Assembly (NCBI RefSeq): GCF_014202975.1
Contig: NZ_JACHHZ010000003.1
Span: 744,001-808,000 of the forward strand
Source of the DNA: Povalibacter uvarum
GTDB taxonomy: Bacteria; Pseudomonadota; Gammaproteobacteria; Steroidobacterales; Steroidobacteraceae
DNA: 64,000 nucleotides
Direction of reading: 5' to 3'
Below are positions 3,048 through 45,840 of this stretch, in pieces. The position numbers and the translations under genes are program-made. Positions within the stretch are counted from its first letter, which is position 1. Every line of letters starts with the position of its first letter. The notes beneath the pieces are model-generated. The model was not told where the DNA came from and searched no databases. It worked only from the letters and a program-made list of their open reading frames with translations.

Positions 3048-3230
3048 GGAAGAAGGCTGCGAGCTGGTGAGCCGCGAGCCAGAGCCGAAGACGCCTGGTG
3101 ACGCATTTCGTCTTCTCCTCTCTAGTGGCTTTCCACGCGCCGCTAGCCATGGACGCTTACATCCGACAGACTCGACGCCGAAATCTTGTTCTGGCTCGCA
3201 GCTCGTCGCTCGCAGCTACCAGCTTCTTCA
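3048..3230. repeat. Inverted heptamer-phased stem element between sthA and mscL
   Basis: The left arm (3050-3084, GAGC-rich) is largely complementary to the right arm (3189-3228). In the right arm GCTCGCA, GCTCGTC, GCTCGCA and GCTACCA follow one another with an exact 7-bp period; the left arm keeps the period only roughly. About 100 bp of non-repeated sequence forms the loop. The right arm ends just before the mscL ribosome site. It belongs to the family described for 11945, 31573 and 45771. Confidence 0.7.
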
Positions 3231-3246
3231 TCGGGAGTCCTCGCTC

Positions 3247-3651
3247 ATGAGCATCGTAAAAGAATTCCGCGAGTTCGCCGTCAAGGGCAACGTCGTCGAC
3301 ATGGCGGTCGGTATCATCATCGGCGCTGCGTTCGGCAAGATCGTCAGTTCGCTGGTGAGCGACGTGGTGACTCCGCCGCTGGGGTATCTGATCGGTGGTG
3401 TCGATTTCACCAAGCTGGCGATTACGTTGCCCGCGATGACGGAAGGGGCCGAAGCGGTGACGATCCGTTACGGTGTGTTCCTGCAGACCCTGTTCGATTT
3501 CATGATCGTCGCCTTCGCGATCTTCATGATCGTCAAGCTCATCAATCGGGTGCGACGCAAGGAAGAAGCTGCGCCGGCTGCTCCGCCAGCGCCGCCGCGG
3601 CAGGAAGTGCTGCTTGAAGAGATTCGGGATCTGTTGAAAGAGAAGAGATAA
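3247..3651 (+). CDS. mscL: Large-conductance mechanosensitive channel MscL
   Basis: Inner-membrane homopentameric channel that opens under membrane tension to release solutes during hypo-osmotic shock. It has 134 residues, the usual size. It shows the N-terminal amphipathic segment ([22 protein letters not shown]), the TM1 pore helix with the small-residue pattern ([21 protein letters not shown]), [12 protein letters not shown] at the TM1-loop junction, TM2 ([21 protein letters not shown]) and the charged C-terminal helix ([11 protein letters not shown]) after a Pro/Ala linker. The ATG at 3247 is used because it matches the family N terminus and has GGGAG upstream; an in-frame upstream opening from 3067 is only read through the repeat element. 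Confidence 0.97.
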
Positions 3652-3659
3652 GCCCGTCT

Positions 3660-3685
3660 GTCATGCCCGCGTACGCGGGCATGAC
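3660..3685. repeat. REP-like palindrome downstream of mscL
   Basis: A perfect 26-bp palindrome, GTCATGCCCGCG next to its own complement, between mscL and the convergent pepQ. It is a variant of the TCATTCCCGC palindromes at 24151, 28509, 37035 and 60663. It probably acts as a bidirectional transcription end or mRNA-stabilising hairpin, but it lacks a clear T run. Confidence 0.75.
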
Positions 3686-3709
3686 GACGAGCCGCTGGTC
3701 AAGCCAAGC

Positions 3710-5032
3710 TCAGGACAGTTTCGCGAACGCGTCGCGGGTGAGGTTCTCCGGCACGCCGGTCGTGCAGGCGACGTTGTCTTCGATGCGGATGCCGCCGTAG
3801 GGTTTGAAGCGCTCAACCTGCTTCCAGTTGATCTCGCGCGCGAACGCAGCGCTGCGCGCTGACTCCAGCAATGAGTCGATGAAGTAGAGGCCGGGCTCGA
3901 TCGTCACTACGAAGCCGGGCTCGAGCGTGCGCGTCAGCCGCAGATAAGGATGCCCGGGTGGCCGCGCCTTCTGCTTGCCGTCGATGTTGATCGTGAAGCC
4001 GGAGACGTCGTGAACCTGCAATCCCAGCAGGTGACCGATGCCGTGCGGGAAAAAGATGCCGGAGAGACCGGACGCGACTGCATCGTCAGGCGCGGTGGCG
4101 ATGATGTCGCTGTCTCGCAGCAGCTGCGCAATCTTTCTGTGGGCGCTCAGGTGAACGTTGGCGTAGTCGACACCGGGGCGAACTTCGTCGCACACCTCGA
4201 GCTGCAGCTTGTGCATGCCGTCGATCAGTGTCTGGAACTCGTCGTTGACCGTTGAGTACGTGCGCGTGATGTCGCTCGAATAGCCCGCGACCTCGCCGCC
4301 GGCATCGATGAGAAACGAGCGCGACTGCAAGGGCGCCACGATCTCCTGGTGCTGGTAGTGAAGCACCGCAGTGTTCTCGTTCAGCGCGATGATGTTCGGA
4401 TACGGCAGGCCGGCTTCGGTGTGCTGGCTCGCCCTCATGAACTCGATATGGATTTCATACTCCGAGGCACCGGAGCGGAAAGCGCGCTCCGCGGCTTTGT
4501 GGCCGCGCGCGCCGCGCAGTGACGCTTGCCTCTGGCACTCGAGCTCATATTCAGTCTTGCGTGCCCGTGGGTAATGCAGTCGATCCAGCAGCGTATTCGG
4601 GTTGCCGGCGGCGAAACCCCACTCCGAATACTCCGCCTGCCATTCGCCGATCAGCGCGCAATTCGGCAGCCGCGTGATGGGGCGACGTGCTTCGGACGCT
4701 TCCCGGATCACTTCGATGGAGAAGTGCTGCGCCCAGTAGTCGGTGGGCAGGGCGGGCGGCTTGTGCCAGTAGTCGTTCGGCTGCAGGAACAGCAGGCGGA
4801 TCGGCTTGGCCGGCTGATACAGAATCCAGCAATCGGGAGCATCGGTCAGCGGCGCCCACGCCTTGAAGTGCGGATTGACCTTGAAAGGGTAGGGCTGGTC
4901 GTCGAGGAACTGCATCCACAGGCGGCCGGAGTGAATCGCCAGCGAATCGAAACCGCAGGCCGCCATGGCCTCATCGGTTCGCGAACGCAGGGTCTGCAGA
5001 TGCGCCGGAAAAAGGGAGTCGAGGGTTGGCAT
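3710..5032 (-). CDS. pepQ: Xaa-Pro dipeptidase (M24B) PepQ
   Basis: Cytoplasmic dimetal dipeptidase that splits Xaa-Pro dipeptides. It has 440 residues from ATG 5032, like PepQ of enterobacteria. The pita-bread fold ligands are all visible: DAGGEVAGYSSDITRTY (two Asp), HGIGHLLGLQVHD (His), TIEPGLYF (Glu) and GIRIEDN (Glu). The N-terminal domain begins MPTLDSLFPAHLQTL. A TTG 30 nt upstream (5062) could add ten residues, but the ATG fits family N termini better; neither has a strong ribosome site. It lies 36 bp downstream of the hydratase-like gene and is probably co-transcribed with it. Confidence 0.95.
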   Translation of the reverse strand: MPTLDSLFPAHLQTLRSRTDEAMAACGFDSLAIHSGRLWMQFLDDQPYPFKVNPHFKAWAPLTDAPDCWILYQPAKPIRLLFLQPNDYWHKPPALPTDYWAQHFSIEVIREASEARRPITRLPNCALIGEWQAEYSEWGFAAGNPNTLLDRLHYPRARKTEYELECQRQASLRGARGHKAAERAFRSGASEYEIHIEFMRASQHTEAGLPYPNIIALNENTAVLHYQHQEIVAPLQSRSFLIDAGGEVAGYSSDITRTYSTVNDEFQTLIDGMHKLQLEVCDEVRPGVDYANVHLSAHRKIAQLLRDSDIIATAPDDAVASGLSGIFFPHGIGHLLGLQVHDVSGFTINIDGKQKARPPGHPYLRLTRTLEPGFVVTIEPGLYFIDSLLESARSAAFAREINWKQVERFKPYGGIRIEDNVACTTGVPENLTRDAFAKLS

Positions 5033-5068
5033 GGCGTTATCTCGAAGGAGTGCCGCCGGCAAAATGCG

Positions 5069-5938
5069 TCACGGCACGATATGGAGCGCAATTGTGCCCC
5101 AAGTTCCGTAGTCCGCGCTGCAGTGGCCGGGCGTTGCGGGAATCATCCGGCCCAGCGCGCCCGTCAGCAGAATCTGGCCGCTCTCGATGGGCCATCCCTG
5201 CTCGATCATCGTGTTCACGAGCCACAGGGCAGCCTGCCATTGATCGCCCAGCGCATCCCGCGCCTGCCCGCGATTGAGCTCCTTGTCGTCGCAGATCAGC
5301 CTGGGGCTCGCCTCGTTCGGATCGCGCAGATCGGGTGAAACGAAATTGCCGACGATGTAGGTCGCGGATCCGACGTTCGACGCGATGATGTCGATCGCCG
5401 TCAGCTCGGCCGGCGACTCGTAGTGCAGGTTCGGAAGCTCGATGGCGGGTGCGACGCCGTCGATGTGAGATCGCAGCTCCGCGATGTCATTCAGTCGTTG
5501 GCGAATCGGCGTGCCGACGCGCAGCGCGACTTCCGTTTCGATGTTGAGTCCGGGCCAGTCGGCGACGCGGATCGTCGCATCCGGATCCCTTTGGCCTTCG
5601 CTGAACAATACTCCCGCGACGGGCTGCGACGCGCGGAAGCGCGCTTGCGCCGCTGCGGAAGTCAGTCCTGCTTTGAACCCAGCCGGCTGCGCACGATTCA
5701 GTTCTCCAGTGAGCTCATGATTCACGACGCGCGTCTGAACGCGATACGCGCTCGCAATTGTCAATGTTTCGTCAATGCGATGAGGCAGCGGCACAGCGTC
5801 GTTGAGGCGGTGCGCTTGCGTGACCGCCGCCGCAACGCGCTGTTGCGGCGATGTGCACGCACAGAGCGCCATACAGACGCAGGCGAGCATCGCGATGCTG
5901 CATTCGAGGCTGGAATTCCGCACGTTTTCGCACTCCAT
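5069..5938 (-). CDS. 2-keto-4-pentenoate hydratase (MhpD)-family protein with lipoprotein-like signal
   Basis: 289 residues. From about residue 40 it follows the fumarylacetoacetase-fold hydratase/decarboxylase family: GFKAGLTS (Lys), GVLF, ETEVALRVG (metal-ligand Glu pair), APAIELP (third Glu), DIIASNVGSATYIVG and a C-terminal TG.LG segment. The active-site acids are therefore retained. Unusually for a normally cytosolic enzyme, the N terminus has a hydrophobic run ending in MALCAC-TSPQQ, which reads as a lipobox. It may thus be a membrane-anchored periplasmic relative acting on an unknown acid. Start ATG 5938 has a weak ribosome site; pepQ follows in the same direction. Confidence 0.8.
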   Translation of the reverse strand: MECENVRNSSLECSIAMLACVCMALCACTSPQQRVAAAVTQAHRLNDAVPLPHRIDETLTIASAYRVQTRVVNHELTGELNRAQPAGFKAGLTSAAAQARFRASQPVAGVLFSEGQRDPDATIRVADWPGLNIETEVALRVGTPIRQRLNDIAELRSHIDGVAPAIELPNLHYESPAELTAIDIIASNVGSATYIVGNFVSPDLRDPNEASPRLICDDKELNRGQARDALGDQWQAALWLVNTMIEQGWPIESGQILLTGALGRMIPATPGHCSADYGTWGTIALHIVP

Positions 5939-6108
5939 GGGGTTGTCTTCGCTTCGCGACGCCGGCCATCGATAGCGTTTTCAAACGTGAATGAAACGCT
6001 CTAGAATCCTCCGCCGCAATCGATGAGATTTTTTCGCTCGATTGCTGTTCGAAGTTTTCAACTCGCAATCGCATCTACGCAATCACATTCACTGGGGTAA
6101 TAGATCAC

Positions 6109-6417
6109 ATGAACACAAAGATGATTCTTGCTGCTCTCGCGCTGTCGCTCTCGCTGGCTGCTTGCGCGAAGAAGGAAGAAGCGGCTGACGCCGCCGCTGC
6201 CGCTGGTGACGCTGCCCAGGCTGCTGGCGAAGCCGCTGGCGACGCTGCTGCTGCTGCTGGTGATGCCGCTGCTGCTGCTGGCACCGCCGCTGGCGACGCC
6301 GCTGCAACTGCTGCTAGCGATGCCGCTGCTGCTGCCGGCGATGCCGCTGCTGCTGCTGGTGACGCTGCTCAGGCTGCTGGCGAAGCTGCCAAGGAAGCAA
6401 CGACTCCTGCTCAGTAA
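6109..6417 (+). CDS. Ala/Gly/Asp repeat lipoprotein
   Basis: 102 residues. The signal peptide MNTKMILAALALSLSLAAC ends in a clear LAAC lipobox, then KKEEA. The mature part is almost entirely AAGDAAA-type units of 7 and 11 residues (GDAAQAA, GEAAGDAAAAA, GDAAAAA, GTAAGDAAATAA...). This is expected to form a long Ala-rich helix with acidic residues at intervals. The pattern resembles small Ala-rich surface lipoproteins and LEA-like helical proteins, but no family is recognised. GGGG lies about 11 nt before the ATG. A strong terminator follows, so it is monocistronic. The repeats are written mostly with GCT/GCC codons, which makes the gene prone to slippage. Confidence 0.85.
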   Translation: MNTKMILAALALSLSLAACAKKEEAADAAAAAGDAAQAAGEAAGDAAAAAGDAAAAAGTAAGDAAATAASDAAAAAGDAAAAAGDAAQAAGEAAKEATTPAQ

Positions 6418-6448
6418 TGAGTCTGCTGCCTGAACCGGCAGCGATGGG

Positions 6449-6480
6449 ACGGGCAGGCGCAAGCCTGCCCGTTTCGTTTT
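6449..6480 (+). terminator. Rho-independent terminator of the repeat lipoprotein
   Basis: Perfect 10-bp GC stem ACGGGCAGGC / GCCTGCCCGT with a GCAA tetraloop, followed by TTTCGTTTT. It lies 32 bp after the lipoprotein stop codon. Confidence 0.9.
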
Positions 6481-6613
6481 GGGCGCTCGCAACAGGCCCC
6501 GTTTCGGAAAGCCCCGATCAATGTCCCGCTGGATACGCACGGTCGGTGAGGCCACAATAGCGCCTTCATCGAAAATGCGGCGGAGGCGGCGCAGGACGAG
6601 CCGTTAGACCCAA

Positions 6614-7135
6614 GTGCCAGTCACGATTCGCGACGCTCAGAACAACACGACCGATCGCACCTGGATCCAGAGACAGTATCCGGAGTACCTGGACGACCTG
6701 TCGCAGCTGAGCATGAACACCGGTGTCTTTCCGGCCGGCGGCGAGTACGGCGAACGCGAACAGGAGCTGCTCGCGCGCTGGTTCGCCGACGACAGCTCGC
6801 ATCCCCTCATTCTCCAGAAGAACGACAAGCCGATCGGCTTTGCGCTCGTGAGTCGTCCGCCCCGTAACCAGCGCGACACGATCGACTATCGGATGGCGGA
6901 ATTCTTCATCGTGCCGGCTCAGCGCCGGACCGGTGCGGGCCGCGACGCTGCAGCGCTGATCTTCAGTCGCTTCGCCGGCGCGTGGGAGATCACCGAGTTC
7001 CTCTACAACAAACCCGCGGTCGCTTTCTGGCGCTCCGTGGTGGGACAGTTCACCGGCGGTCGCTTCAAGGAACAGACGGTGCACGGCGAAGTCAGACAAA
7101 CCTTCACCACGAAGCACGCGTCCGCGCGGCGCTAG
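6614..7135 (+). CDS. GNAT-family N-acetyltransferase
   Basis: 173-residue putative acetyltransferase; the acceptor is unknown. The acetyl-CoA site is seen as AEFFIVPAQRRTGAGRDAAALIFSRF (GNAT motif A, Q/RxxGxG/A form QRRTGAG), preceded by strand KPIGFALVSR and followed by the NKPAVAFWRSV motif-B segment typical of GNATs. The start is GTG at 6614 (MPVTIRDAQ). It ends almost at the stop of the convergent ATP-pyrophosphatase gene (1-bp gap), so the two probably share a termination zone. Confidence 0.85.
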   Translation: MPVTIRDAQNNTTDRTWIQRQYPEYLDDLSQLSMNTGVFPAGGEYGEREQELLARWFADDSSHPLILQKNDKPIGFALVSRPPRNQRDTIDYRMAEFFIVPAQRRTGAGRDAAALIFSRFAGAWEITEFLYNKPAVAFWRSVVGQFTGGRFKEQTVHGEVRQTFTTKHASARR

Positions 7136-7136
7136 T

Positions 7137-7829: not shown

Positions 7830-7871
7830 GTTTATGATCCTTCAGAGCTTCAGGTGACCGGTGCAATCCCG

Positions 7872-8324
7872 ATGAATCGCTACTGCGGCATCTTGCTGCT
7901 GTTGTTCGTTTTCGCTGAGACCGTGGCAGCGTCCGATCCGCGGGCTTGCGTGGCCATCGAGGACGCTGCGGCGCGGCTCGCATGTTACGACGCCGCGTTC
8001 GAACGTGCTCCAGTCGCTGCGGCGGGTGCGGCAACTACGGAGTTCGGCATGAACGACCGGTTGCGTCGTGAGAAGGACGGCGGCAGTCCCAAGGACACGG
8101 AGCCCGCGGAGATTTCGGCCAGTGTTGCGACGGCGAGCCGCAATCCGCAGGGGTACTACACGCTCGAGCTCGACAACGGTCAGCGCTGGTACGTAAGCGA
8201 ATCGGCGCCTGCCCAGGCGTTCAGGCAAGGCGATGTCGTGACGATCCGGCGGGCTGCCCTCGGGTCGTACCTGCTGACTCGCTCGCGCGGCGGCGAGTCG
8301 CTGCGGGCCAAGCGGATCGGGTAG
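7872..8324 (+). CDS. Small exported protein of unknown function
   Basis: 150 residues from ATG 7872. A signal peptide (MNRYCGILLLLFVFAETVAAS) is followed by DPRACVAIEDAAARLACYDAAF. This CxxIxDxxxRLxCYDxxF pattern is seen in many short periplasmic proteins, including some type VI secretion accessories. The C-terminal half (YYTLELDNGQRWYV...FRQGDVVTIRRAALGSYLL) looks like a small beta-barrel. An in-frame upstream opening from 7809 would put 21 residues before the signal, so the internal ATG is preferred. No neighbouring secretion genes exist, so no role is assigned. Confidence 0.75.
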   Translation: MNRYCGILLLLFVFAETVAASDPRACVAIEDAAARLACYDAAFERAPVAAAGAATTEFGMNDRLRREKDGGSPKDTEPAEISASVATASRNPQGYYTLELDNGQRWYVSESAPAQAFRQGDVVTIRRAALGSYLLTRSRGGESLRAKRIG

Positions 8325-8352: not shown

Positions 8353-8354
8353 AC

Positions 8355-11213
<2,859 letters not shown>

Positions 11214-11939: not shown

Positions 11940-11944
11940 AGAAG

Positions 11945-12047
11945 CGTTAGCGGTTGGCGGTTGGCGGTTAGTTCAGAAGGGAGCCGGGGCGCTCTCTGCG
12001 TAACTCTTTGTTTTCTCTGACTAACCGCTAACCGCTAACCGCTGATC
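11945..12047. repeat. Inverted heptamer-phased stem element between ssb and miaB
   Basis: Left arm 11946-11973 is four units in exact 7-bp register (GTTAGCG, GTTGGCG, GTTGGCG, GTTAGTT). Right arm 12021-12041 is CTAACCG three times, then CTGATCA, also period 7 and complementary to the left arm. The ~47-bp loop ends in a TTTGTTTTCTCTG run. The unit differs from that of the other heptamer elements but the architecture is the same. Confidence 0.85.
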
Positions 12048-12092
12048 ACTTCCTCCGCTGTATCCTACCGCCCCCGCTTTTCCGCCCGTCCC

Positions 12093-13478
12093 ATGCCCTT
12101 TCTCTATATCCGCACCAACGGCTGCCAGATGAACGAGTACGACTCCACCAAGATGGTGGACGTGCTGCGGGAATCGGGCGGTTACGAGCTGACGGAGGAT
12201 CCGGCGCAGGCGGACGTGATTCTCCTGAACACGTGCTCGATCCGCGAAAAGGCCCAGGAGAAGGTCTTTTCCCAGCTCGGCACCTGGAAGCAGCTGAAGC
12301 ACGCGAAGCCAGACCTGATCATCGGAGTCGGTGGATGTGTGGCGAGCCAGGAAGGCGAGGGCATCACGCGCCGCGCGCCGTATGTCGACCTGGTTTTCGG
12401 GCCGCAGACGCTGCATCGCCTGCCGGACATGATCCAGGAGCGCAGGTCGAGAGGCCGCGCCGTCGTCGACATCAGTTTCCCTGAGATCGAGAAGTTCGAT
12501 CATCTGCCGCAGCCGCGCGCCGAGGGGGCCACTGCGTTCGTGTCGATCATGGAAGGCTGCAGCAAGTACTGCTCCTTCTGTGTCGTGCCGTACACGCGCG
12601 GTGAAGAAGTCAGCCGCCCGTTCGAGCCGGTCATGCAGGAAATCCGTCAGCTAGCCGACCAGGGCGTGCGGGAGATCCATCTGCTCGGCCAGAACGTAAA
12701 CGCATATCGCGGTCCGATGGAAGACGGCACCCAGTGCGATCTCGCGACGCTCATCTACTGCATCGCCGAGATCGAGGGCATCGAGCGCATCCGCTTCACG
12801 ACGTCTCATCCCGTCGAGTTCAGTGACGCGCTCATCGAGGCCTATCGCGACGTGCCGAAGCTCGCGAACTATCTGCACCTGCCGGTGCAGGCGGGCTCCG
12901 ACCGGATACTGATGGCGATGAAGCGCGGCTACACGGCGCTCGAGTACAAGCAGAAGATCCGCAAGCTCCGCGCGGTGCGACCCGACATCAGCATTTCATC
13001 GGACTTCATCGTCGGGTTTCCGGGAGAAACCGAGCGCGATTTCGCGGCAACGATGAACCTGATCGCCGATGTCGGCTTCGATCAGTCCTTCAGCTTCGTC
13101 TACAGCCGCCGGCCCGGAACGCCTGCCGCGTCGTTGCCCGACGACGTTACGCAGGAAGAGAAACACAAGCGATTGCAGATCCTGCAGTCGCGCATCAATG
13201 AGCGCTCGCTCGAGATCAGCCAGTCGATGATCGGCACCGTGCAGCGCGTGCTCGTCGAACGTCCTTCGAAGAAGGATTCGCACCAGCTGGCGGGCCGCAC
13301 CGAGAACATGCGCTGGGTGAACTTTGATGCGCCCCGGACGTTGATCGGTCAGTTCGCGGACGTCGTGATCACCGAGGCCCTGAGCAACTCGCTGCGCGGC
13401 CGGCTCATCACAGAAGACCGGATCTCCACGGGGCACACGGGGGCCACGGGGGACGGAACGAAAACGCAGGCTGCATAG
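12093..13478 (+). CDS. miaB: tRNA-2-methylthio-N6-dimethylallyladenosine synthase MiaB
   Basis: Radical-SAM enzyme that methylthiolates i6A37 of tRNAs reading UNN codons. 461 residues. The UPF0004 domain has the auxiliary-cluster cysteines ([32 protein letters not shown]). The radical-SAM CxxxCxxC is [19 protein letters not shown]-terminal TRAM domain ends near LRGRLI. The last ~17 residues ([17 protein letters not shown]) are not a normal MiaB end: they are encoded by the left arm of a 9-bp-repeat element. First of a same-strand run with phoH, ybeY, corC and lnt. Confidence 0.98.
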
Positions 13479-13556
13479 CCCGGTTGAGGCACACCATGGC
13501 TATTGATTCGATCTGATCCGACCCGGTGTTCCCCGTGCTCCCCGTGGAAATCTTCT
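13422..13556. repeat. Inverted nonamer-phased stem element at the miaB-phoH junction
   Basis: The left arm contains CACGGGGCA, CACGGGGGC and CACGGGGGA in exact 9-bp register (13427-13453), inside the 3' end of miaB. The right arm has GTGTTCCCC and GTGCTCCCC, then GTGGAAATC (13526-13552). It is complementary to the left arm and ends two codons before the TTG start of phoH. Loop about 70 bp. Same architecture as the element at 15989. Confidence 0.85.
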
Positions 13557-13557
13557 C

Positions 13558-14547
13558 TTGAGTACTCCCGTCGAAACCCGCGATCTTGCTCTGGAGCCCG
13601 TCGACAACGCGCGGCTCGCGAACTTCGTGGGACCCATGGATGAAAACCTGCGTCATGTCGAGCAGCGGCTCGGCGTGCAAGTGCGTCGTCGCGGCGGACA
13701 GGTTGAAGTCTCGGGTCCGGCCGAAGCAGCCGACGCTGCGCAAACCGTGCTGCGCAAGCTGTTCGATCTGTCGGCGCGCGAGTCGTTGACGCCGGATCGG
13801 GTGCACCTCGCGCTCCAGGAAGCCGGGATGGAGGCCGCGCCCGCTGCCGCTCCCCAGCGTGCCGATGATCTGGCGATCCACACACAACGCGGCGGCATTC
13901 GCGGTCGTGGCCCGAACCAGCGCCAGTATCTGCACAACATTCATTCGTCCGATCTCACCTTCGGCATTGGTCCCGCGGGAACGGGCAAGACGTTTCTTGC
14001 TGTCGCGTGCGCCGTCGAAGCGCTGCAGTCGGAACGCGTTCGCCGGATCGTGCTCGTGCGGCCGGCTGTGGAGGCGGGCGAGAGGCTTGGCTTCCTGCCG
14101 GGCGACCTTGCTCAGAAGGTCGATCCGTATCTGCGTCCGATGTATGACGCGCTGTACGAAATGATGGGGTTCGATCGCGTCGCGCGAGCCGTGGAGCGCC
14201 AGGTCATCGAGATCGCGCCGCTTGCCTTCATGCGCGGTCGTTCGCTGAACGATTCCTTCATCATTCTGGATGAAGCGCAGAACACGACCGTCGAACAGAT
14301 GAAGATGTTCCTGACGCGTCTCGGCTTCGGCTCGAAGGCCGTCGTGACCGGCGACATCACTCAGACCGACCTGCCGAAGCAGCAGGTGTCGGGGCTCAGG
14401 AACGCGATGAAGATCCTGCCAGGCGTTCAGGGCGTGTCGTTCACGCACTTCACGTCTCGCGACGTCGTGCGCCATCCGCTGGTCCAGCGCATCGTCGAGG
14501 CGTACGAGCGCAAGCCGCCCGATTCCAGCCCTGGTGAGGAGTCGTAG
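13558..14547 (+). CDS. ybeZ: PhoH-like ATPase (YbeZ)
   Basis: Cytoplasmic P-loop ATPase that works with the YbeY endoribonuclease in ribosome quality control and rRNA maturation. 329 residues from TTG 13558. An N-terminal KH-like region (LRHVEQRLGVQVRRRGGQVEVSG) precedes the PhoH domain: Walker A GIGPAGTGKTFLAVA, RIVLVRPAVEAGERLGFLPGDL, Walker B SFIILDEAQNTT and VTGDITQTDLP. The TTG start gives the usual N-terminal length; a later ATG (13636) is less likely. The ribosome site overlaps the right arm of the nonamer element. Confidence 0.95.
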   Translation: MSTPVETRDLALEPVDNARLANFVGPMDENLRHVEQRLGVQVRRRGGQVEVSGPAEAADAAQTVLRKLFDLSARESLTPDRVHLALQEAGMEAAPAAAPQRADDLAIHTQRGGIRGRGPNQRQYLHNIHSSDLTFGIGPAGTGKTFLAVACAVEALQSERVRRIVLVRPAVEAGERLGFLPGDLAQKVDPYLRPMYDALYEMMGFDRVARAVERQVIEIAPLAFMRGRSLNDSFIILDEAQNTTVEQMKMFLTRLGFGSKAVVTGDITQTDLPKQQVSGLRNAMKILPGVQGVSFTHFTSRDVVRHPLVQRIVEAYERKPPDSSPGEES

Positions 14548-15988: not shown

Positions 15989-16126
15989 GATTTCATACGG
16001 AGAGCACGGAGACAAATGATTTCAAAGTTCCGAAGAGCATCACGTCGTCGTTGGTTCTCCGCTCCGGCACTCGAATAACAATTGCGATCATGAACTCCGT
16101 GATCTCCGTGAACTCCGTGTGAAACC
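15989..16126. repeat. Inverted nonamer-phased stem element at the corC-lnt junction
   Basis: The right arm 16091-16118 carries GAACTCCGT, GATCTCCGT and GAACTCCGT in 9-bp register. The left arm (about 15992-16012) reads ACGGAGAGC, ACGGAGAC and is complementary, with flanks GATTTCA/TGAAACC extending the stem. The lnt GTG start codon is part of the right arm. Unit sequence (CACGGAGNN) is related to that of the miaB-phoH element (CACGGGGNN). Confidence 0.8.
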
Positions 16127-17666
16127 TCTTCTCTCTCCTGACTTCTTCGACACGCGACTCGCGCACTGGCTGGCGCTGCCGGCGGGCGCGCTGCTGTCGC
16201 TCGCGTTCGCGCCGGTCGGCTGGTGGCCGCTCGCGATTCTCTGTCCCGCCTGGCTGTTTCTCACATGGCTGAACACGACGCCGCGGCTTGCAGCGAAGTC
16301 GGGGTTCCTGTTCACCGTGGGATTGTTTCTCGCGGGCACGTACTGGCTGTACAACACGATCCATGAAGTGGGGCACGCGCCGGCGTGGATCGCCATCTTC
16401 CTCATGTTCGGCATGGTCGCGATTCTGGGCAGCTACACCGCCGGCCTGGGCTATGCGCTGGCGCGCTGGCTGCCGGCCCGCAAGGCCGATGGAACGTTCG
16501 TGGCGAGCCTTCTGCATCTGCTGCTGGTTTTTCCCGCTGCCTACACGGTACTCGAATGGTTTCGCGGCTGGTTTCTCAGCGGCTTTCCGTGGTTCGCGCT
16601 CGGCTACTCGCAGACCGATTCGCCTCTTGCAGGCTTCGCGCCGATCGCCGGTGTTTACGGGATCAGTCTGTTCGTGGCGATCTCGGCCGGTGCGCTGGTG
16701 GCGATCGTCTTCGCAGACAATCGCGCACGCATAGTCTCCGCCGCCGTGCTCGTTGCGGTCTGGGTCGTGGGAGGGCTGCTCTGGCATCGCGAATGGACGG
16801 CGCCCATCGGTCGGCCCATCACTGTCGCCATCGTCCAGGGCGCGGTGCCGCAGGATGTGAAATGGAGCGTCGAGTATCGCGATTCGACCCTCGCGCTTTA
16901 CCGTGATCTCAGTTGGCCGCATCTCGGCAAGGACATCATCCTCTGGCCCGAGTCCGCGTTGCCGGATATGCCCGACCAGTTGCGGAGCTACGTTTCGTAC
17001 ATGTGGTCGGCGGCACGTGCGCGTGGATCCGCGCTCATCACCGGCATGCTTCGCTACGGCGACGACGAGAACGACATCCGCAACGGCCTGCTCGCGCTCG
17101 ATAAGGACGCGCAGTGGTACGACAAGAGGCGCCTCGTTCCTTTCGGCGAGGTTTTCCCGGTGCCATCGTTCATCCGGTCGTGGATGCGATTGCAGAATCT
17201 TCCTTACACCGACCTCACGCCGGGCGCGCGGCATCAGCCTGCTCTCGATGCAGCGGGCAACAAGATCGGTGCCACGATCTGCTACGAAGATGCCTACGGC
17301 GCCGAGCAGCTCGAAGTGCTGAAGGAAGCGACATTGCTGGTCAACGTCACCAACGATGCGTGGTTCGGCGACACGACCGCCGCCCCGCAGCATCTGCAGA
17401 TCAGCCGCATGCGTGTCATGGAAGCGCAGCGGCCGCTGCTGCGTGCGGCGAATGACGGGATCTCGGCGTTGATTCTCGCGAATGGGACGGTCGAGAAGAC
17501 GCTCCCGCGATTCAAGCCCGACGTTCTGACGGGCGTCGTGCAGCCTCGAACCGGCCTCACTCCCTATGCGCGCGTCGGCAACTGGCCAGTCATCGGCACT
17601 TCCGCGCTGATTCTCGCGGTCGTCGGTTTCTTCGCGTTCCGCTCGCGCCGCAATCGCGGCGCGTAA
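16119..17666 (+). CDS. lnt: Apolipoprotein N-acyltransferase
   Basis: Inner-membrane enzyme that adds the third acyl chain to lipoproteins before Lol sorting. 515 residues: N-terminal membrane helices (LALPAGALLSLAFAPVGWWPLAI, FTVGLFLAGTYWLYNTI...) and a periplasmic nitrilase domain with the Glu-Lys-Cys triad (ILWPESALP, YDKRRLVPFGEVFP, ATICYEDAYG), plus the VNVTNDAWFGDT motif and a final TM helix. Start GTG 16119 lies in the nonamer repeat. The stop codon directly abuts the stop of the convergent mannonate dehydratase. Confidence 0.97.
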   Translation: MKPLLSPDFFDTRLAHWLALPAGALLSLAFAPVGWWPLAILCPAWLFLTWLNTTPRLAAKSGFLFTVGLFLAGTYWLYNTIHEVGHAPAWIAIFLMFGMVAILGSYTAGLGYALARWLPARKADGTFVASLLHLLLVFPAAYTVLEWFRGWFLSGFPWFALGYSQTDSPLAGFAPIAGVYGISLFVAISAGALVAIVFADNRARIVSAAVLVAVWVVGGLLWHREWTAPIGRPITVAIVQGAVPQDVKWSVEYRDSTLALYRDLSWPHLGKDIILWPESALPDMPDQLRSYVSYMWSAARARGSALITGMLRYGDDENDIRNGLLALDKDAQWYDKRRLVPFGEVFPVPSFIRSWMRLQNLPYTDLTPGARHQPALDAAGNKIGATICYEDAYGAEQLEVLKEATLLVNVTNDAWFGDTTAAPQHLQISRMRVMEAQRPLLRAANDGISALILANGTVEKTLPRFKPDVLTGVVQPRTGLTPYARVGNWPVIGTSALILAVVGFFAFRSRRNRGA

Positions 17667-24150: not shown

Positions 24151-24251
24151 CGTCATTCCCGCGAAGGCGGGAATCCATCCTGTTCCGGGTGATGTGACGG
24201 GGACGTAACGGCAGGAGGGCAGGATGGATTCCCGCGTGCGCGGGAATGACG
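24151..24251. repeat. Paired REP/BIME-like element
   Basis: Two TCATTCCCGC palindromes in opposite orientation (24151-24182 and 24220-24251). Each is a short hairpin followed by GGATTCCATCC-type tail sequence (GAATCCATCCTG / CAGGATGGATTC), so the whole 100 bp is one inverted repeat with ~31-bp arms. It lies between the convergent beta-glucuronidase and C13 peptidase genes. Confidence 0.85.
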
Positions 24252-29849: not shown

Positions 29850-31574
29850 ATGACGATTGCAGCGATCGTGCTGGGGCTCGCAGTGCTAGCCCTGGCGACA
29901 GTGTGCGGCCGGCCCCTGGGGTACTACATTGCCGATGTCCTCGATGGCAAGGCAACGCCCCGGAGTCGCTTCCGTTTCAACATCGAGCGCTGGATCTACC
30001 GTGTCGCCGGAGTCGATGCGGAACGCGAGACCGGTTGGAAGCAATATGCTGTCGGTGTCCTGCTTTTCAGTGTCGTCGGAACGCTGTTCGTCTATGCCTT
30101 GCAGCGGTTGCAGGCGGTGTTGCCGCTCAATCCACAGGCTTTCGGCGCGGTGACGCCGGATTCGTCCTTCAATACCGCGGTCAGCTTCGTGACCAACACG
30201 AACTGGCAGGGGTACGCGGGCGAATCGACGATGAGTCACCTCACGCAGATGGCAGGGCTCGCGGTTCAGAATTTTGTTTCGGCAGCGACGGGCATCGCTG
30301 TGGCGGCGGCGTTGATCCGCGGCTTCGCGCGCCACACTTCCACGACGATCGGCAATTTCTGGGTCGACCTGACCCGCGTCACGCTGTACGTGCTGTTGCC
30401 GCTCGCAGCGGTCATGGCACTCGTGCTCGTCTCACAGGGCGTGATCCAGAACTTTGACGCGTACAAGGAAGTGACAGCAGTTGCACAGGGCAGCACCCAG
30501 ACGCTGCCGATGGGACCCGTCGCTTCGCAGGAGGCCATCAAGGAGCTGGGCACCAACGGCGGCGGATTCTTCAACGCGAACTCCGCGCATCCCTACGAGA
30601 ACCCGAACACGCTGACCAATTTCATTCAGCTGTTCGCGATCCTCCTGATTCCGATCGCGCTGACATTCACGTTCGGCCGGATGGTCGGCGACGCGAGGCA
30701 GGGGTGGGCCGTGCTCGCGGGCATGGCGATCCTGTTCGTCGCACTCTGGCTCGTCGCTGTTCACTTCGAGCAGCAGGGCAACCCGGTCTTCACGCAGGTC
30801 GGTGCCGACGTGGCTCGTTCCGATACCCAGCCGGGCGGCAATATGGAGGGGAAGGAAGCGCGCTTCGGCGTAGGTGCGTCGGCATTGTTCGTTGCCGTCA
30901 CGACGGCGACGTCCACCGGTGCCGTGAACACGATGCACGATTCGATGACGCCGATGGGAGGGCTCGTGCCGATGTTCCTCATGCAGCTCGGCGAAGTCGC
31001 CTTCGGCGGTGTCGGCTCCGGCCTCTACGGCATGCTGATCTACGCACTGCTCGGCGTTTTCATTGCCGGCCTCATGATCGGTCGCACGCCGGAGTATCTC
31101 GGCAAGAAGATCGAAGCGTTCGACATGAAGATGACGTCGATCGCGATCCTGGCCACGCCCTTCGTCGTGCTCATCGGCACTGCTGTCGCCGTGTCCGTGG
31201 AAGCAGGAAAAATCGGTGTGGCCAATCCCGGTGCTCACGGCTTCTCAGAGATCCTGTACGCATTCAGCTCCGCCGGCAACAACAACGGCAGCGCCTTCGC
31301 CGGCCTCTCGGCGAACACCCCGTTCTACAACACGGCGCTCGGTATCGCGATGTGGCTCGGCCGCTTCTGGGTGCTGATCCCTGTGCTTGCGATCGCCGGC
31401 TCTCTCGCCGCAAAGAAGCGCGCACCCGTAACCGCCGGCACGCTACCGACTCACGGCCCGCTGTTCGTCGTGCTGCTCATCGGCTCGGTACTGCTGATCG
31501 GCGCACTGACGTACGTGCCCGCGCTGGCCTTGGGACCGGTGGTGGAGCAGCTGATGATGAGCGGCGAGAAATGA
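29850..31574 (+). CDS. kdpA: K+-transporting ATPase subunit KdpA
   Basis: 574-residue channel-like, K+-selective membrane subunit. The four selectivity-filter loops are visible: TNTNWQGYAGE, LGTNGGGFFNANS, TSTGAVNTMHDS and SSAGNNNGSAF. About ten TM helices. The stop codon TGA is the first part of a heptamer-repeat element that separates kdpA from kdpB. Confidence 0.97.
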   Translation: MTIAAIVLGLAVLALATVCGRPLGYYIADVLDGKATPRSRFRFNIERWIYRVAGVDAERETGWKQYAVGVLLFSVVGTLFVYALQRLQAVLPLNPQAFGAVTPDSSFNTAVSFVTNTNWQGYAGESTMSHLTQMAGLAVQNFVSAATGIAVAAALIRGFARHTSTTIGNFWVDLTRVTLYVLLPLAAVMALVLVSQGVIQNFDAYKEVTAVAQGSTQTLPMGPVASQEAIKELGTNGGGFFNANSAHPYENPNTLTNFIQLFAILLIPIALTFTFGRMVGDARQGWAVLAGMAILFVALWLVAVHFEQQGNPVFTQVGADVARSDTQPGGNMEGKEARFGVGASALFVAVTTATSTGAVNTMHDSMTPMGGLVPMFLMQLGEVAFGGVGSGLYGMLIYALLGVFIAGLMIGRTPEYLGKKIEAFDMKMTSIAILATPFVVLIGTAVAVSVEAGKIGVANPGAHGFSEILYAFSSAGNNNGSAFAGLSANTPFYNTALGIAMWLGRFWVLIPVLAIAGSLAAKKRAPVTAGTLPTHGPLFVVLLIGSVLLIGALTYVPALALGPVVEQLMMSGEK

Positions 31575-31658
31575 GCGGTAAGCAACGAGCAACGAGCGGT
31601 GAGCAACGAGCCAGAGGGCTCTGATCCTCTTCTGGCTCACAGCCCATAGCCTCTCCTG
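31573..31658. repeat. Inverted heptamer-phased stem element between kdpA and kdpB
   Basis: Left arm: six units in exact 7-bp register (GAGCGGT, AAGCAAC, GAGCAAC, GAGCGGT, GAGCAAC, GAGCCAG; 31573-31614). Right arm: GGCTCAC, AGCCCAT, AGCCTCT (31634-31654), complementary in outline. The loop edge TTCTGGCTC is shared with the elements at 3048 and 45771. It sits inside the kdp operon and begins in the kdpA stop codon. Confidence 0.88.
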
Positions 31659-41944: not shown

Positions 41945-42058
41945 TTTTCTCGTCCGCTCTGCAGTAGGGGTGTCGCCGTTTGCGTGGACGGCGACGCGTC
42001 TGATATGAAGCATCCACCAACAAATGGCATGCCGAAGCAGTGTGCCGGGGGAGGATGC

Positions 42059-44221
42059 ATGGGTGCGATTCGATTCACTTTCCTGCTCGGATTGTTCGGG
42101 CTCGTGGCCGGGTGCGGAGGAGGCGGCAGCGGTGGCGGCGGTGACGACACCAGCCTGACGCTCAGTGCCTCGACGGTCACATTCGAGGCCTTTGTCGCCG
42201 AGCCTGCGGCGGAAACGAAGACCTTGCAGGTATCGTGGACCGGTTCGAAGGTTGCCGGCTTCATCGTCGGTACATTGCCAGGCCAGACCCTGCCGAGCTG
42301 GCTCGACGTTACGGCCGTCGGTACGAGCAACCCGACGACACTACAGATAACGCGGCGGCCCGTTGCCTTGCCCACCGGACGACAATCGATCACCTTGCGG
42401 GTCGTGACCGGTGATGCCAACCAGAACATCTTCGACACGCGGGATTTCACAGTCACGCTCGATGTAGTCGCCGTTCCCACCGCGGCGCCGACCGCGCTCT
42501 CGTGGGTGGAGACGGAGCAGCCAGCGAACCGGGCGATCGCGATCACCCGCGATAGTCGTGTTCAGATCGCGAGCGTCACGCCCACTGTCGACTGGATCAG
42601 CGCCGCAGTTTCCGGCGATTCGATCAATCTCTCCGGCACGGCGGCTTCTGCCGCGCTGGCGCCGGGGGCAGTGACAGGTGCGGTCCGGGCGACGTTCTCG
42701 CTGGGAGGGCGGCAGCGCATTGTCGATATCCCAGTGACGGGAATGATCTCGCCCGCACTCTCGGGCACGGCGTCGCTCGCGTACGAAGTGAACGCATCGA
42801 CGCAAGCGGCGAATCTGTCGAATCTGGCCGTAACGGTTACGGCTGCGACCCAGTCCGCGATCGGGTTCAACGTGCAGAGCAGTGCGGCCTGGCTGATCGC
42901 AACAGGGACGACCACCGGCGCCCCGGGCAATGTCTCGGTTTCGTTGAGTCCGAGCGAGCTGCAGCAGATGGGGTACGGGATCCACAACGCAACGCTGACC
43001 ATAGCGCCCACTGGCAGCTCGGCACGCCCACTGCAGATTCCTGTCTCGCTCAATCTGCGGCTGCCGGAAGTGCATTTCGTCGCGCCGGTTGCCTTCACGG
43101 ATTCCGTCGCGAACGACTACGTCATCGCTCGCGGCGCGGGCTTCTCGGATCCCGCAGCGGTGCCCTCGCTGGACGGGCAGGTGATGGGAGGCGTCACCGT
43201 CATGAGCGATACGGAACTGCGATTCGTTCCTGGTGCCCGGGCCGCAGGCGACTATGAGGTGCGGGTATCGAACAATCTCGGCTTCACGCGCGACAGCGCC
43301 AATCTGCGCGTCGCCGAGCCGCCGTCGTACGGCAATTTCACGATGGCCGCTGCGGTCGAGTTGCAGGAACGCGTGGTTTCCAGCCCGATCAATGGCGTCG
43401 TGCTGAGCAGCAACTGTTATTTCTGCTGGGATGGCGACTCCAAATCGACTTTGCAGCGGTTTTCCTACGACGCCGGCACGCAGACCTGGACTCGCACCCA
43501 GCATGCCTATCCGGGGTTGTACGATTTTGCTTTCAGTCCGGATGAATCCCAGCTCATCGTGATGACGTCGACCGACGTGCTGCTGGTCGATCCCCTGACG
43601 ATGGCGACGATCCAGTCGTACCCGTTGCCCTTCCAGATAGGCGGCAGCTCGCGACAACTTGCGGTACTGAACAGCGGCGTGGTCATCATCGACGACTTGC
43701 GGCGCGGGTTCTCGCTGCGCTCGCGTCAGTTCGTGGAAGTCCCGAACTACCTCGCGGGCGGAGGCCTGGCGGTCAGCATCGACGGAAGTCGCGCGATGTT
43801 CGGCTCGCCCACCAACTCGGGTGATGTTCCGTACGGCTATCTCGATGCGTCCAACGGCGCCATCTACACGTCGCCGACGCGCCAGCACTACGCCCGCGGC
43901 ATCTACTCGCGACACGCCGAAGCCGGCTTCACCAACAACTACGTGTTGAATGCGGATCTGGAGCTGCGCGGGACACTGCCGGTCGCAAGTCACGCCGGCG
44001 ATCTGTCGCCCGACGGCACGCGAGCTTATGGATTGGACTACGCCGCCGGCGCATTGCGCGTCTTCGATATCACCGGATCGGAGCCCTTCGCGGAGATTCT
44101 TCCCGCGTATGCGGCGCCAGGGGTCGACGCCTATAGCGGCGGGCGTGTGGCGATCGACCCGAGCGGTCGCGCCATCTTCGTCATCTCGGAAACCGACTTC
44201 ACCGTAATTGCACTGCCCTGA
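42059..44221 (+). CDS. Large lipoprotein with BACON/Ig-like repeats and a beta-propeller-like C terminus
   Basis: 720 residues from ATG 42059, preceded by GGGGGAGGA. Signal ends in the lipobox LVAGC, then poly-Gly GGGGSGGGGDD. Three BACON-like ~100-residue modules follow (LTLSASTVTFEAFVAEPAAETKTLQVSW...; LSWVETEQPANRAIAITRDSRVQIAS...; ASLAYEVNASTQAANLSNLAVTVTA...), then an IPT-like segment (FVAPVAFTDSVANDYVIARGAGF). From ~450 come WD40/YVTN-like strands (YDFAFSPDESQLIVMTSTDVLLVDPLTMATI; GDLSPDGTRAYGLDYAAGALRVFDITG). Probably surface-exposed, possibly glycan- or protein-binding. It follows the TonB receptor by 114 bp. Confidence 0.82.
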   Translation: MGAIRFTFLLGLFGLVAGCGGGGSGGGGDDTSLTLSASTVTFEAFVAEPAAETKTLQVSWTGSKVAGFIVGTLPGQTLPSWLDVTAVGTSNPTTLQITRRPVALPTGRQSITLRVVTGDANQNIFDTRDFTVTLDVVAVPTAAPTALSWVETEQPANRAIAITRDSRVQIASVTPTVDWISAAVSGDSINLSGTAASAALAPGAVTGAVRATFSLGGRQRIVDIPVTGMISPALSGTASLAYEVNASTQAANLSNLAVTVTAATQSAIGFNVQSSAAWLIATGTTTGAPGNVSVSLSPSELQQMGYGIHNATLTIAPTGSSARPLQIPVSLNLRLPEVHFVAPVAFTDSVANDYVIARGAGFSDPAAVPSLDGQVMGGVTVMSDTELRFVPGARAAGDYEVRVSNNLGFTRDSANLRVAEPPSYGNFTMAAAVELQERVVSSPINGVVLSSNCYFCWDGDSKSTLQRFSYDAGTQTWTRTQHAYPGLYDFAFSPDESQLIVMTSTDVLLVDPLTMATIQSYPLPFQIGGSSRQLAVLNSGVVIIDDLRRGFSLRSRQFVEVPNYLAGGGLAVSIDGSRAMFGSPTNSGDVPYGYLDASNGAIYTSPTRQHYARGIYSRHAEAGFTNNYVLNADLELRGTLPVASHAGDLSPDGTRAYGLDYAAGALRVFDITGSEPFAEILPAYAAPGVDAYSGGRVAIDPSGRAIFVISETDFTVIALP

Positions 44222-44233
44222 GGGCAGCTGCGC

Positions 44234-45538
44234 CTACGACGCGGACAGCACCCGTTCCATCAGCGAAGGCTGCATCCGCTTCAGAAAGCGATCGGCCGTC
44301 TGCGGCCGCTCGCGCCGGTCGAACGACAGGCAGCGATCGATCAATTTCTTCAGGCGGCTGTTGAGGCCAGGCACCGGCGCGAATGTCATTCCCTTCTGGC
44401 GCGCAATGGCCATGCTGCTGCGCTGGAAGGGATGGACGCCCGTCAGCATCTCGTACGCGATGACGCCGAGCGGATAGAGATCATCCGCGGGATGCGGCTG
44501 CGAGTGCTGCGCCCAGGGATCGGTTGCATACGCCTCGGTGTAAGCACGCAGCGTCAGCGTGTCGAGCACGTCGAGCGACTCGTTGCTGACCGGGACGGCG
44601 TTGACCAGGCCGAACGCCATGATCTTTGCCGTGCCATCGTCGCACAGGAAGACAGCGTGCGGGCTCAGGTCGGAATGCACGATGCCGTGACGATGCGCGA
44701 ACGCGAGACCGTTGGCGATTCCTGAAATGATGGGCCACGCGAGCTCATGCGACGTGCCGCATCCGCGTACCTCGCGGATGAGACTGCTCAGCCATCGGCC
44801 GCGCAGCGGCTCCATGACGATGAACACCCGATCGCCCTGTTGCTCGAGGCTGCGGACGCCGACGATATTCGGATGAATCAGATGCTGGGTGCGACGGATC
44901 GCCGCATCGAGCGCTGCGTATGCGGCCGGCTGATGCCGCAGGTTCACTGCGACGACCTTTACCGTGACTTTCTCGCGCCCGCCGAGACTGAGGAGATCGA
45001 CGGCCTCGAAAACCTGGCCGACACCGCCGGCGCCGAGGTGGCTCACGATCCGATACCGGTCCTTGAGTACGCTGCCGGGAACGATGTTCTCCGGATCCGC
45101 CGGATGACACGTGGCCGCGACGATGGCCGCCGAGTCGAACCATTCGATCGGGCCGGTCAGGGGCGTGGCAGGGGCGAGGTCATGCGCAGTCTCGACGCGC
45201 TTGTGAGTCGTGCGTTCGATGAGCGCATTGAGCAGCCGGTCGGTTTCTCGCATGCGATCGGCTGTCGTGGGCGCCGGCCTCGATGATTCGGGCGGCAGCA
45301 TTCCGGAATCGATCCAGACGGTGCGATCGGTCTGAAAGCCTTCGAGCGCATCGAGCAGCGAGCGGGCCACGCTGCGCGTAATGCGTTTGTCTTTCATCGC
45401 GGCTTCGACGCGCAGGTTCCAGAAACGCGTACCGGCAGGATCGGCTTGCGCCGATGCAAGCAACGACTGGCAGGCGGCGTCGAGTGTTATCGACTGCCCG
45501 CGCAGATCCTCGATGATCTGGTCGACGTGCTTCCCCAT
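44234..45538 (-). CDS. Serine/threonine kinase-fold protein, probable pseudokinase
   Basis: 434 residues from ATG 45538 (AAGGA upstream). An N-terminal ~165 residues of unknown type precede a kinase fold: YRIVSHLGAGGVGQVFEAVD (Gly loop), VTVKVVAV (Lys), HPNIVGVRSL and a C-lobe ending DDLYPLGVIAYEMLTGVHPF. Key residues are changed: catalytic loop HSDLSPHAVF instead of HRDLKPxNxx (Lys and Asn lost), AFG instead of DFG, and Ala at the alpha-C Glu position. It should bind poorly or not at all to Mg-ATP and may act as a scaffold or sensor. No transmembrane segment. Confidence 0.88.
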   Translation of the reverse strand: MGKHVDQIIEDLRGQSITLDAACQSLLASAQADPAGTRFWNLRVEAAMKDKRITRSVARSLLDALEGFQTDRTVWIDSGMLPPESSRPAPTTADRMRETDRLLNALIERTTHKRVETAHDLAPATPLTGPIEWFDSAAIVAATCHPADPENIVPGSVLKDRYRIVSHLGAGGVGQVFEAVDLLSLGGREKVTVKVVAVNLRHQPAAYAALDAAIRRTQHLIHPNIVGVRSLEQQGDRVFIVMEPLRGRWLSSLIREVRGCGTSHELAWPIISGIANGLAFAHRHGIVHSDLSPHAVFLCDDGTAKIMAFGLVNAVPVSNESLDVLDTLTLRAYTEAYATDPWAQHSQPHPADDLYPLGVIAYEMLTGVHPFQRSSMAIARQKGMTFAPVPGLNSRLKKLIDRCLSFDRRERPQTADRFLKRMQPSLMERVLSAS

Positions 45539-45770
45539 GGCCTGTTTCCTTGTGCGTTCCGGAAAATCCGGGATCCATTCGGCGGCCCGGCTTGCAAACC
45601 GGTACATCGCGCATGGTTTGAAGAATATTCACCGCCTGTGCACCCAGGATGTGACCGCCGGCTCATTTTTCCCGGCCGTTCGGCGGATTGCATGCAATTG
45701 TTCGCGGGTGTCCGCTGATCGGAACGGGGGGCGTCCCGCTTATGTATAGCGGCCTGCCGGACTTGGCGAT

Positions 45771-45840
45771 GAGCGGCGAGCTATGAGCGATGAGTCAGAA
45801 GCCTGCTGAGGTTCTGGCTCATTGCTCGTCGCTCGCAGCG
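45771..45840. repeat. Inverted heptamer-phased stem element between the pseudokinase and the 123-aa gene
   Basis: Left arm GAGCGGC, GAGCTAT, GAGCGAT, GAGTCAG (45771-45798) and right arm GCTCATT, GCTCGTC, GCTCGCA (45817-45837), both in exact 7-bp register and mutually complementary. Short loop (about 18 bp) with the TTCTGGCTC edge. It ends a few bases from the stop codon of the gene at 45845. The rest of the gap (45539-45770) holds no gene that I can support. Confidence 0.88.

What the first reader, a model, noticed from the sequence alone, without database searches (positions are those of the whole stretch)
3048..45840. Heptamer-phased inverted stem elements at four intergenic sites
At 3048-3230, 11945-12047, 31573-31658 and 45771-45840 both arms of a hairpin are tandem repeats with a 7-bp period (e.g. 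GAGCAAC/GAGCGGT units at 31573, GTTAGCG/GTTGGCG at 11946). Unit sequences differ between sites, yet unit length, inverted layout, loop placement and position (touching a stop codon or a ribosome site) are conserved. Three share the loop-edge word TTCTGGCTC. Shared architecture with diverging units suggests a process that expands and corrects the arms, or selection on structure rather than sequence. They could be a mobile non-coding element, an mRNA-processing site or a protein-binding array.
Basis: seen in the sequence. Interest (0 to 1): 0.75.

Follow-up and report, generated by a model that had tools for sequence, protein, structure and literature searches.

The report
Paired seven-base repeats between genes
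Short seven-letter repeats sit as mirror-image pairs in the gaps between genes of this bacterium, hard against stop and start signals; related species fill some of the same gaps with different seven-letter words, so the layout is kept while the words change.

Summary
Site 11945 is a near-perfect heptamer hairpin; 3048 and 45771 are good stems with looser phasing; 31573 (kdpA-kdpB) has heptamers on one side only and folds no better than shuffles. In 1.2 Mb of the 6.32-Mb genome there are 82 clusters of period-7 arrays. Where two unambiguous arms are seen, the purine-rich one is left and the pyrimidine-rich one right (18 RY, 0 YR). R-first clusters lie a median 1.5 nt after a + strand stop. The two arms share a unit family (TTRGCGG, ATRGCGG, GAGCNRY and others), but tested loops are unrelated, no target duplication was found, and arms are not matched to each other within a family. 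In relatives the same gap is usually empty of heptamers, or sometimes holds a pair built from another unit. The same position and polarity rule is published for quadruplex-forming GGGAATC heptamers in Xanthomonas (PMC4692102); the main units here lack GGG, so quadruplexes cannot be the general cause. Best reading: a REPIN-like, lineage-specific dispersed repeat class that fills gene gaps edge to edge. Copying mechanism unknown; function not shown. New variant of a known kind.

The parts
3048..3083 (+). site 1, purine-rich (R) arm, GAGC-type, directly after the transhydrogenase stop codon
   Evidence: sequence; fold; gene
3189..3229 (+). site 1, pyrimidine-rich (Y) arm with TTCTGGCTC; upstream of mscL (start 3247)
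11942..11974 (+). site 2, R arm, TTRGCGG units, 2 nt after the ssb stop
12017..12051 (+). site 2, Y arm, CTAACCG units, upstream of miaB
   Evidence: fold z -9.03
31574..31615 (+). site 3, R arm, GAGC-type heptamers, overlapping the kdpA stop by one base
31630..31651 (+). site 3, degenerate Y side: only TTCTGGCTC and neighbours pair; upstream of kdpB
   Evidence: fold z +0.11
45770..45799 (+). site 4, R arm, GAGC-type
45812..45839 (+). site 4, Y arm with TTCTGGCTC, 5 nt from a minus-strand stop predicted at 45845
13414..13559 (+). related period-9 pair (CCACGGGGG / CCCCGTGCT) spanning the end of miaB
16089..16121 (+). related period-9 Y array (ACTCCGTGA units)

Best explanation
These are copies of a dispersed, lineage-specific class of intergenic repeats that work like REPINs. 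Two copies of a short arm (about 30-40 nt; in the TTRGCGG family an outer GAGAAGC, then usually 2-4 exact heptamers, then a looser inner edge) lie in inverted order, purine strand always pointing into the gap, around a loop that differs from site to site. Shown: dispersal, unit sharing by the two arms, fixed polarity, fit to gene edges, different unit families in different species, and presence/absence between relatives. Inferred: that a copying or transposition-like process puts in the pair and replaces the old gap, and that the pair persists because a stem between two genes, its base close to a stop and a start codon, is tolerated or mildly useful in the mRNA. The enzyme is not identified.
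For: Layout of 82 clusters: R 27, Y 25, RY 18, nY 3, Rn 2, RR 1, n 6, YR 0; R arrays nearest the left gene 41 of 49, Y arrays nearest the right gene 41 of 46 (11 of 106 arrays ambiguous); arrays in 5 of 133 divergent gaps of 40 bp or more, against 66 of 393 tandem and 10 of 73 convergent. R-first clusters after a + strand stop: 33 of 38 within 12 nt (overlaps counted as 0); random placement in the same gaps gives 17.9 on average, 24 at most. The rule repeats in G002 (R-left 11 of 12, Y-right 9 of 10, 7 ambiguous) and G012/G013 (9 of 11, 6 of 7, 1 ambiguous). Same unit family on both arms in 24 two-array elements, 0 of 2000 permutations. Outer consensus GAGAAGC, each base in at least 70% of 37 TTRGCGG runs. 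Lineage-specific abundance: pattern RGCGGWTRGCGGWTRGCGG own 346 hits (reversed control 19), G012 233, G011 66, 0 of 46 genomes outside the genus. Presence/absence: pheS-pheT arrays in 3 of 12 genomes, the other nine with stretches of 11-65 nt that include up to 12 coding bases; kdpA-kdpB 22 and 30 nt in the two relatives resolved.
Against: Loops are unrelated (18 of 24 two-array loops were long enough to test; 0 of 306 comparisons above z 4, best 3.6 over 19 nt at the arm edge), and the one loop correctly searched has no second copy in 14 genomes; transposition of a whole element does not predict this. No target duplication (mean longest 4.00 against 3.97 permuted, n 24). 58 of 82 clusters show one array only, some with a weak partner. 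Y1 transposases (PF01797) do not track the elements: none in G011, G013 or G004, which carry some; two in G009, whose 80-kb sample has no period-7 array.
Confidence: 0.5

Rival explanations
1. Selection on RNA structure: the gap needs a stem (mRNA 3' end, processing or stability), and any hairpin-forming sequence, heptameric or not, may supply it.
For: At nusG-rplK several relatives without heptamers show some other hairpin-like sequence after the nusG stop, by eye. G002 gaps where our genome has arrays fold better than other gaps (median z -1.53 against -0.94, n 14 and 73, one-sided p 0.014; one of the 14 is an outlier at -9.8, a nested period-9 hairpin). Arrays are rare in divergent gaps. 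Loops of two own elements contain terminator-like stems, by eye.
Against: No covariation across the stem. The kdpA-kdpB site folds like its shuffles. Most clusters have one detected array. In pheS-pheT nine of 12 genomes have little or no room for a stem. No terminator-like site at the heptamer stems (that scan takes loops of 3-8 nt only). z below -2 in 36% of the 14 gaps against 26% of the 73.
Confidence: 0.2
2. Replication slippage of heptamers in place, as suggested in print for heptamer SSRs, with the inverted pairing by chance or by template switching.
For: Heptamer excess in bacteria, length variation and a polymerase-slippage idea are given in PMC4692102 (sections 3, 14, 16 read). Mixed arms exist, e.g. 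TTRGCGG next to ATRGCGG at C1:945223. At C1:268495 own and G002 share GAGC-type units by eye.
Against: The same unit and outer edge recur at dozens of gaps. Fixed RY polarity with 0 YR. No arm-to-arm matching within a family.
Confidence: 0.12
3. G-quadruplex repeats, the property stressed for GGGAATC heptamers in Xanthomonas.
For: Same unit length, inverted convergent pairs and position rule (PMC4692102 sections 10 and 13). A minor unit type here, GGGTGAC, does carry GGG.
Against: The main units here (TTRGCGG, ATRGCGG, GAGCNRY, CTGGCNR) have no GGG tract.
Confidence: 0.03
4. Protein-binding array (a DNA- or RNA-binding regulator reads the heptamers).
For: Phased units near start codons; a post-transcriptional binder was proposed for TAACTGA repeats (PMC4679880 abstract).
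Against: At least six unit types in one genome by eye, and a different unit in the same gap in relatives.
Confidence: 0.07

Closest known systems
GGGAATC / GGGGAYT heptamer repeats of Xanthomonas and Nostoc (Rehm et al. 2015, PMC4692102; abstract and sections 3, 10, 13, 14, 16 read)
   Same: Heptamer arrays, intergenic, dispersed; 70 (Xcc) and 75 (Xac) cases as convergent inverted pairs; most within 50 bp after a stop on the coding strand or before a start on the other strand; rare between divergent genes.
   Different: The main units here lack GGG; several unit families per genome; gaps shared with a relative carry different units; [quoted passage not shown]
REPINs / REP doublets (Bertels and Rainey 2011, PMC3116915; passages read)
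   Same: Inverted pair of a conserved short repeat around a less conserved spacer, hairpin-forming, dispersed between genes, singlets common.
   Different: Arms are tandem heptamers, not short palindromes; spacer about 0-163 nt between detected arrays and unrelated between copies; no clear link to a Y1 transposase.
TAACTGA repeats of Beggiatoaceae (MacGregor 2015, PMC4679880; abstract and section 7 read)
   Same: Intergenic heptamer arrays, most upstream of start codons, the largest category ending 1 nt before.
   Different: Almost all direct (one inverted case in 170 sets), a single unit.
GTAG/CGTC-tagged REPs (PMC3733652; passages read)
   Same: Close to coding regions; GTAG elements often supply a TAG stop, as predicted here at C1:243166 and C1:970962.
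   Different: The paper's main text does not contain the word heptamer; no phased arms described in the passages seen.

Membership tests
Rehm-type heptamer repeats | intergenic tandem heptamers, dispersed | tested here: met
   82 clusters in 1.2 Mb
Rehm-type heptamer repeats | inverted pairs in convergent orientation, purine strand pointing away from the gene | tested here: met
   18 RY, 0 YR; 41 of 49 and 41 of 46
Rehm-type heptamer repeats | GGG tract in each unit (G-quadruplex former) | tested here: not met
   main units TTRGCGG, ATRGCGG, GAGCNRY, CTGGCNR; minor GGGTGAC units are an exception
REPIN | two inverted conserved ends around a less conserved spacer | tested here: met
REPIN | each end a short palindrome with a GTAG or CGTC-type tag | tested here: not met
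   arms are tandem heptamers, outer GAGAAGC
REPIN | cognate RAYT / Y1 transposase in the genome | tested here: inconclusive
   PF01797 matches in own, G002, G012, G006, G009, G005; none in array-bearing G011, G013, G004 and G007 (75% complete)
MITE | target-site duplication | tested here: not met
   24 two-array elements, 4.00 against 3.97 permuted
MITE | conserved interior between copies | tested here: not met
   0 of 306 comparisons of 18 loops
intrinsic terminator | stem followed by a T run | tested here: not met
   none; one site at 45725-45738 outside the stem; the scan takes loops of 3-8 nt only, but no T run follows the Y arms on reading
known RNA family (Rfam 15) | gathering-score match in the window | tested here: not met
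   0 matches in the window
G-quadruplex repeat | forms a quadruplex in vitro | not testable with these tools
   -

The most novel reading that the evidence does not exclude
The pairs may be scars of broken gene gaps healed by a repeat-adding enzyme. A telomerase-like reverse transcriptase, or another templated end-adder, adds the same heptamer to both 3' ends of a break, and the ends are joined through filler DNA. That would give, in one step, fixed unit length with free unit sequence, one unit family on both arms, purine strand pointing inwards as in a head-to-head telomere fusion, unrelated loops, no target duplication, no arm-to-arm matching, and loss of the old gap up to the gene edges. 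Bacterial reverse transcriptases that make tandem-repeat DNA have been reported (DRT10, preprint PMC12632851, abstract and outline seen). No such enzyme was looked for here, and the conserved outer GAGAAGC is not explained by it.
Probability: 0.05. Interest if true: 0.92.

Novelty: new variant of a known kind. Interest (0 to 1): 0.56.

Why it matters
It separates the architecture (unit length, inverted pair, polarity, gene-edge fit) from the unit sequence. That removes G-quadruplexes as the general explanation of heptamer repeats and suggests, as inference, one process behind the repeats of Xanthomonas relatives and of this genus. It also gives a concrete open question: how can arms spread in family-matched pairs while the loop between them is new each time?

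Tried and rejected
Arms corrected against each other: not supported within the TTRGCGG family (small n). Target duplication: a 7-bp match at C1:492969 looked promising, but 24 elements give no excess. Homologous loops between own and G002 at the urea-transporter gap, which I first believed: not supported (local z 1.6, global z 0.4). Integron attC sites: considered from memory and dropped, no test made. Loss of Shine-Dalgarno sequences before Y arms: 4 of 31 against 191 of 706, p 0.096, not significant. Decay of coding sequence: dropped, since 106 of 122 period-7 arrays are intergenic at the looser threshold. The gene caller is home-made, trained on this genome and used on others; the start codons it picks may be biased towards array ends, stop codons are exact.

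In 80 MiaB-bearing loci from named genomes of other Gammaproteobacteria and one betaproteobacterium (1.43 Mb), 1 strict inverted period-7 pair and 13 period-7 arrays against 10 in a shuffle were found: no overall excess, though single loci of Xanthomonas and Thioalkalivibrio look clear by eye. The six loci used for the position rule were picked from these, five of them because they had shown arrays.

Full report
What was claimed and what is there. The four sites were read and folded. Site 11945-12047 is a near-perfect heptamer hairpin (z -9.03). Sites 3048 (z -3.97) and 45771 (z -5.33) are clear stems with one strictly periodic arm each. Site 31573 has a heptamer left arm but only an inner stem; as a whole it folds like its shuffles (z +0.11). 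TTCTGGCTC is present at three of the four.

Beyond chance. I took 1.2 Mb of the 6.32-Mb genome (C3:600001-880000 and C1:200001-1120000). Of 102 non-overlapping inverted repeats, 19 have period-7 arms on both sides; three shuffles of each stretch gave none. Of the other periods from 4 to 15, only 9 (11 cases) and 14 (16, the harmonic of 7) gave more than two. Period-7 arrays number 80, of them 75 intergenic, against 6 in one shuffle. With a looser threshold 106 of 122 arrays are intergenic and form 82 clusters, about 68 per Mb.

Anatomy. Arrays are purine-rich (R), pyrimidine-rich (Y) or ambiguous (n) on the + strand. Clusters: R 27, Y 25, RY 18, nY 3, Rn 2, RR 1, n 6, and no YR. R arrays lie nearer the left gene in 41 of 49 cases and Y arrays nearer the right gene in 41 of 46. 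Single arrays obey the same rule in 42 of 52 unambiguous cases. R-first clusters after a + strand stop lie a median 1.5 nt from it (overlaps counted as 0); 33 of 38 within 12 nt, where random placement gives 17.9 on average and 24 at most. Gaps of at least 40 bp with arrays: 66 of 393 tandem, 10 of 73 convergent, 5 of 133 divergent. The 37 TTRGCGG runs share an outer consensus GAGAAGC; GAGC runs (36) often go on as GAGCCAGA, each base in at least half (these runs were not limited to gaps). Period-9 intergenic arrays, nearly all of CACGGAG or CACGGGG type, follow the same rule in 24 of 26 unambiguous cases, and two of them lie in the window.

Units, arms and loops. Several unit types share this genome: TTRGCGG, ATRGCGG, GAGCNRY, GAGGCNY, CTGGCNR, GTGACGN (by eye). 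The two arms of an element share a family (24 elements, 0 of 2000 permutations), but within TTRGCGG the true partner is no closer than any other arm (n = 8), and the variable A/G position does not covary across the stem. Of 24 two-array elements, 18 loops were long enough to compare: no similarity above z 4 in 306 comparisons (best 3.6, 19 nt at the arm edge) and no second copy in the 1.2 Mb. One loop of 111 nt has no second copy in the own genome or 13 relatives (next matches E 0.08 or worse).

Relatives. G002 is the closest relative by protein identity in six of seven genus-wide protein searches and second to G006 in the seventh. Of 143 orthologous gaps compared with it, arrays are in both in 4, own only 17, G002 only 2, neither 120 (Fisher p 0.004). 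In all four shared gaps the detected units differ; in one of them (C3:712164, rplA-rplJ) the detected arrays sit at different places in a long gap. Against this, at C1:268495 G002 has, below the detector's threshold, the same GAGC-type units as own, by eye. Around a urea-type transporter substrate-binding gene the upstream gap has pairs of GAGC (own), CTGGC (G002) and GGCGGAC (G007) units, none in four other relatives, and is only partly covered in G004; the downstream gap has GAGC (own), ACAGGCG (G002) and GGGCGAC (G004), none in four others, and is not resolved in G007. Loops of own and G002 in the upstream gap are not demonstrably homologous, so I do not claim change in place. At pheS-pheT, own and G012 have TTRGCGG pairs and G013 a TACAGCC array, while nine others have short stretches. 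At nusG-rplK three of 12 genomes have flagged arrays (own, G011, G012), all with TTRGCGG-type units, G012 with an ATRGCGG-like left side by eye. At ssb-miaB own and G012 have arrays with different units, five resolved relatives have none and five gaps were not resolved; the Thioalkalivibrio MAG L084 has a heptamer array overlapping the predicted ssb stop. At sth-mscL, of 13 resolved gaps own has a period-7 array and G012 a period-9 array. At kdpA-kdpB, own alone of 3 resolved of 9.

Range. The pattern RGCGGWTRGCGGWTRGCGG occurs 346 times in this genome (reversed control 19), in 8 of 14 genomes of the genus (some with only 2-7 hits) and in 0 of 46 others. Samples of 80 kb from each of five relatives had no period-7 array, although one of them, G011, has 66 pattern hits genome-wide; 723 kb of G002 had 37 and 77 kb of G012/G013 had 18, the G012 stretches having been chosen near known arrays. 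The position rule holds in G002 and G012/G013; loci of Xanthomonas, Lysobacter, Luteimonas and Thioalkalivibrio gave R-left 5 of 6 and Y-right 3 of 5.

How it most likely works. The facts fit a dispersed inverted-pair repeat, like REPINs, that comes in lineage-specific bursts and fills gene gaps from stop to start. The enzyme is unknown; Y1 transposases do not track it. Ordinary transposition should copy the loop and often leave a target duplication; neither was seen. Structural selection has modest support (G002 gap folding, p 0.014; hairpins of other kinds at nusG-rplK by eye) and opposing facts (no covariation, single arms, the weak kdpA-kdpB site).

What is known. Rehm et al. (PMC4692102) described GGGAATC heptamers in Xanthomonas with the same inverted convergent pairs and the same gene-edge polarity; they showed quadruplex formation in vitro and left the function open. 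TAACTGA repeats in Beggiatoaceae lie mostly just before start codons (PMC4679880). REPINs have conserved ends and a less conserved spacer (PMC3116915). In the listings of searches (several capped) I saw no paper describing inverted heptamer pairs with several unit families in one genome or unit differences in the same gap; that covers the held library and those terms only.

Noticed in passing
window 13414-13559 and 16089-16121: Period-9 arrays (CACGGGG / CTCCGTGAA units) with the same inverted layout and gene-edge rule; across the 1.2-Mb sample 24 of 26 unambiguous period-9 arrays obey it.
   Followed up: partly
L251 (G002) about 3270-3750, gap orthologous to window site 45771: Nested period-9 hairpins, CACGGGG units inside CACGGAG units, where the window has a GAGC heptamer hairpin.
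   Followed up: no
window 24151-24251, 51064-51164, 60657-60729: Ordinary REP-like palindromes (ATTCCCGCGAAGGCGGGAAT and GTCCGGCTTCAGCCGGAC types).
   Followed up: no
L299 2744-2855 and L300 1224-1347: Guanidine-I riboswitch (RF00442) upstream of a urea-type ABC transporter gene, beside one of the heptamer gaps.
   Followed up: yes
G012, L297 about 17221-17317: Long run of GGGTGAC heptamers, about 13 copies.
   Followed up: no
C1:1092741-1092808 and C1:482390 region of the own genome: Terminator-like stems with T runs lie inside the loops of heptamer pairs, by eye.
   Followed up: no
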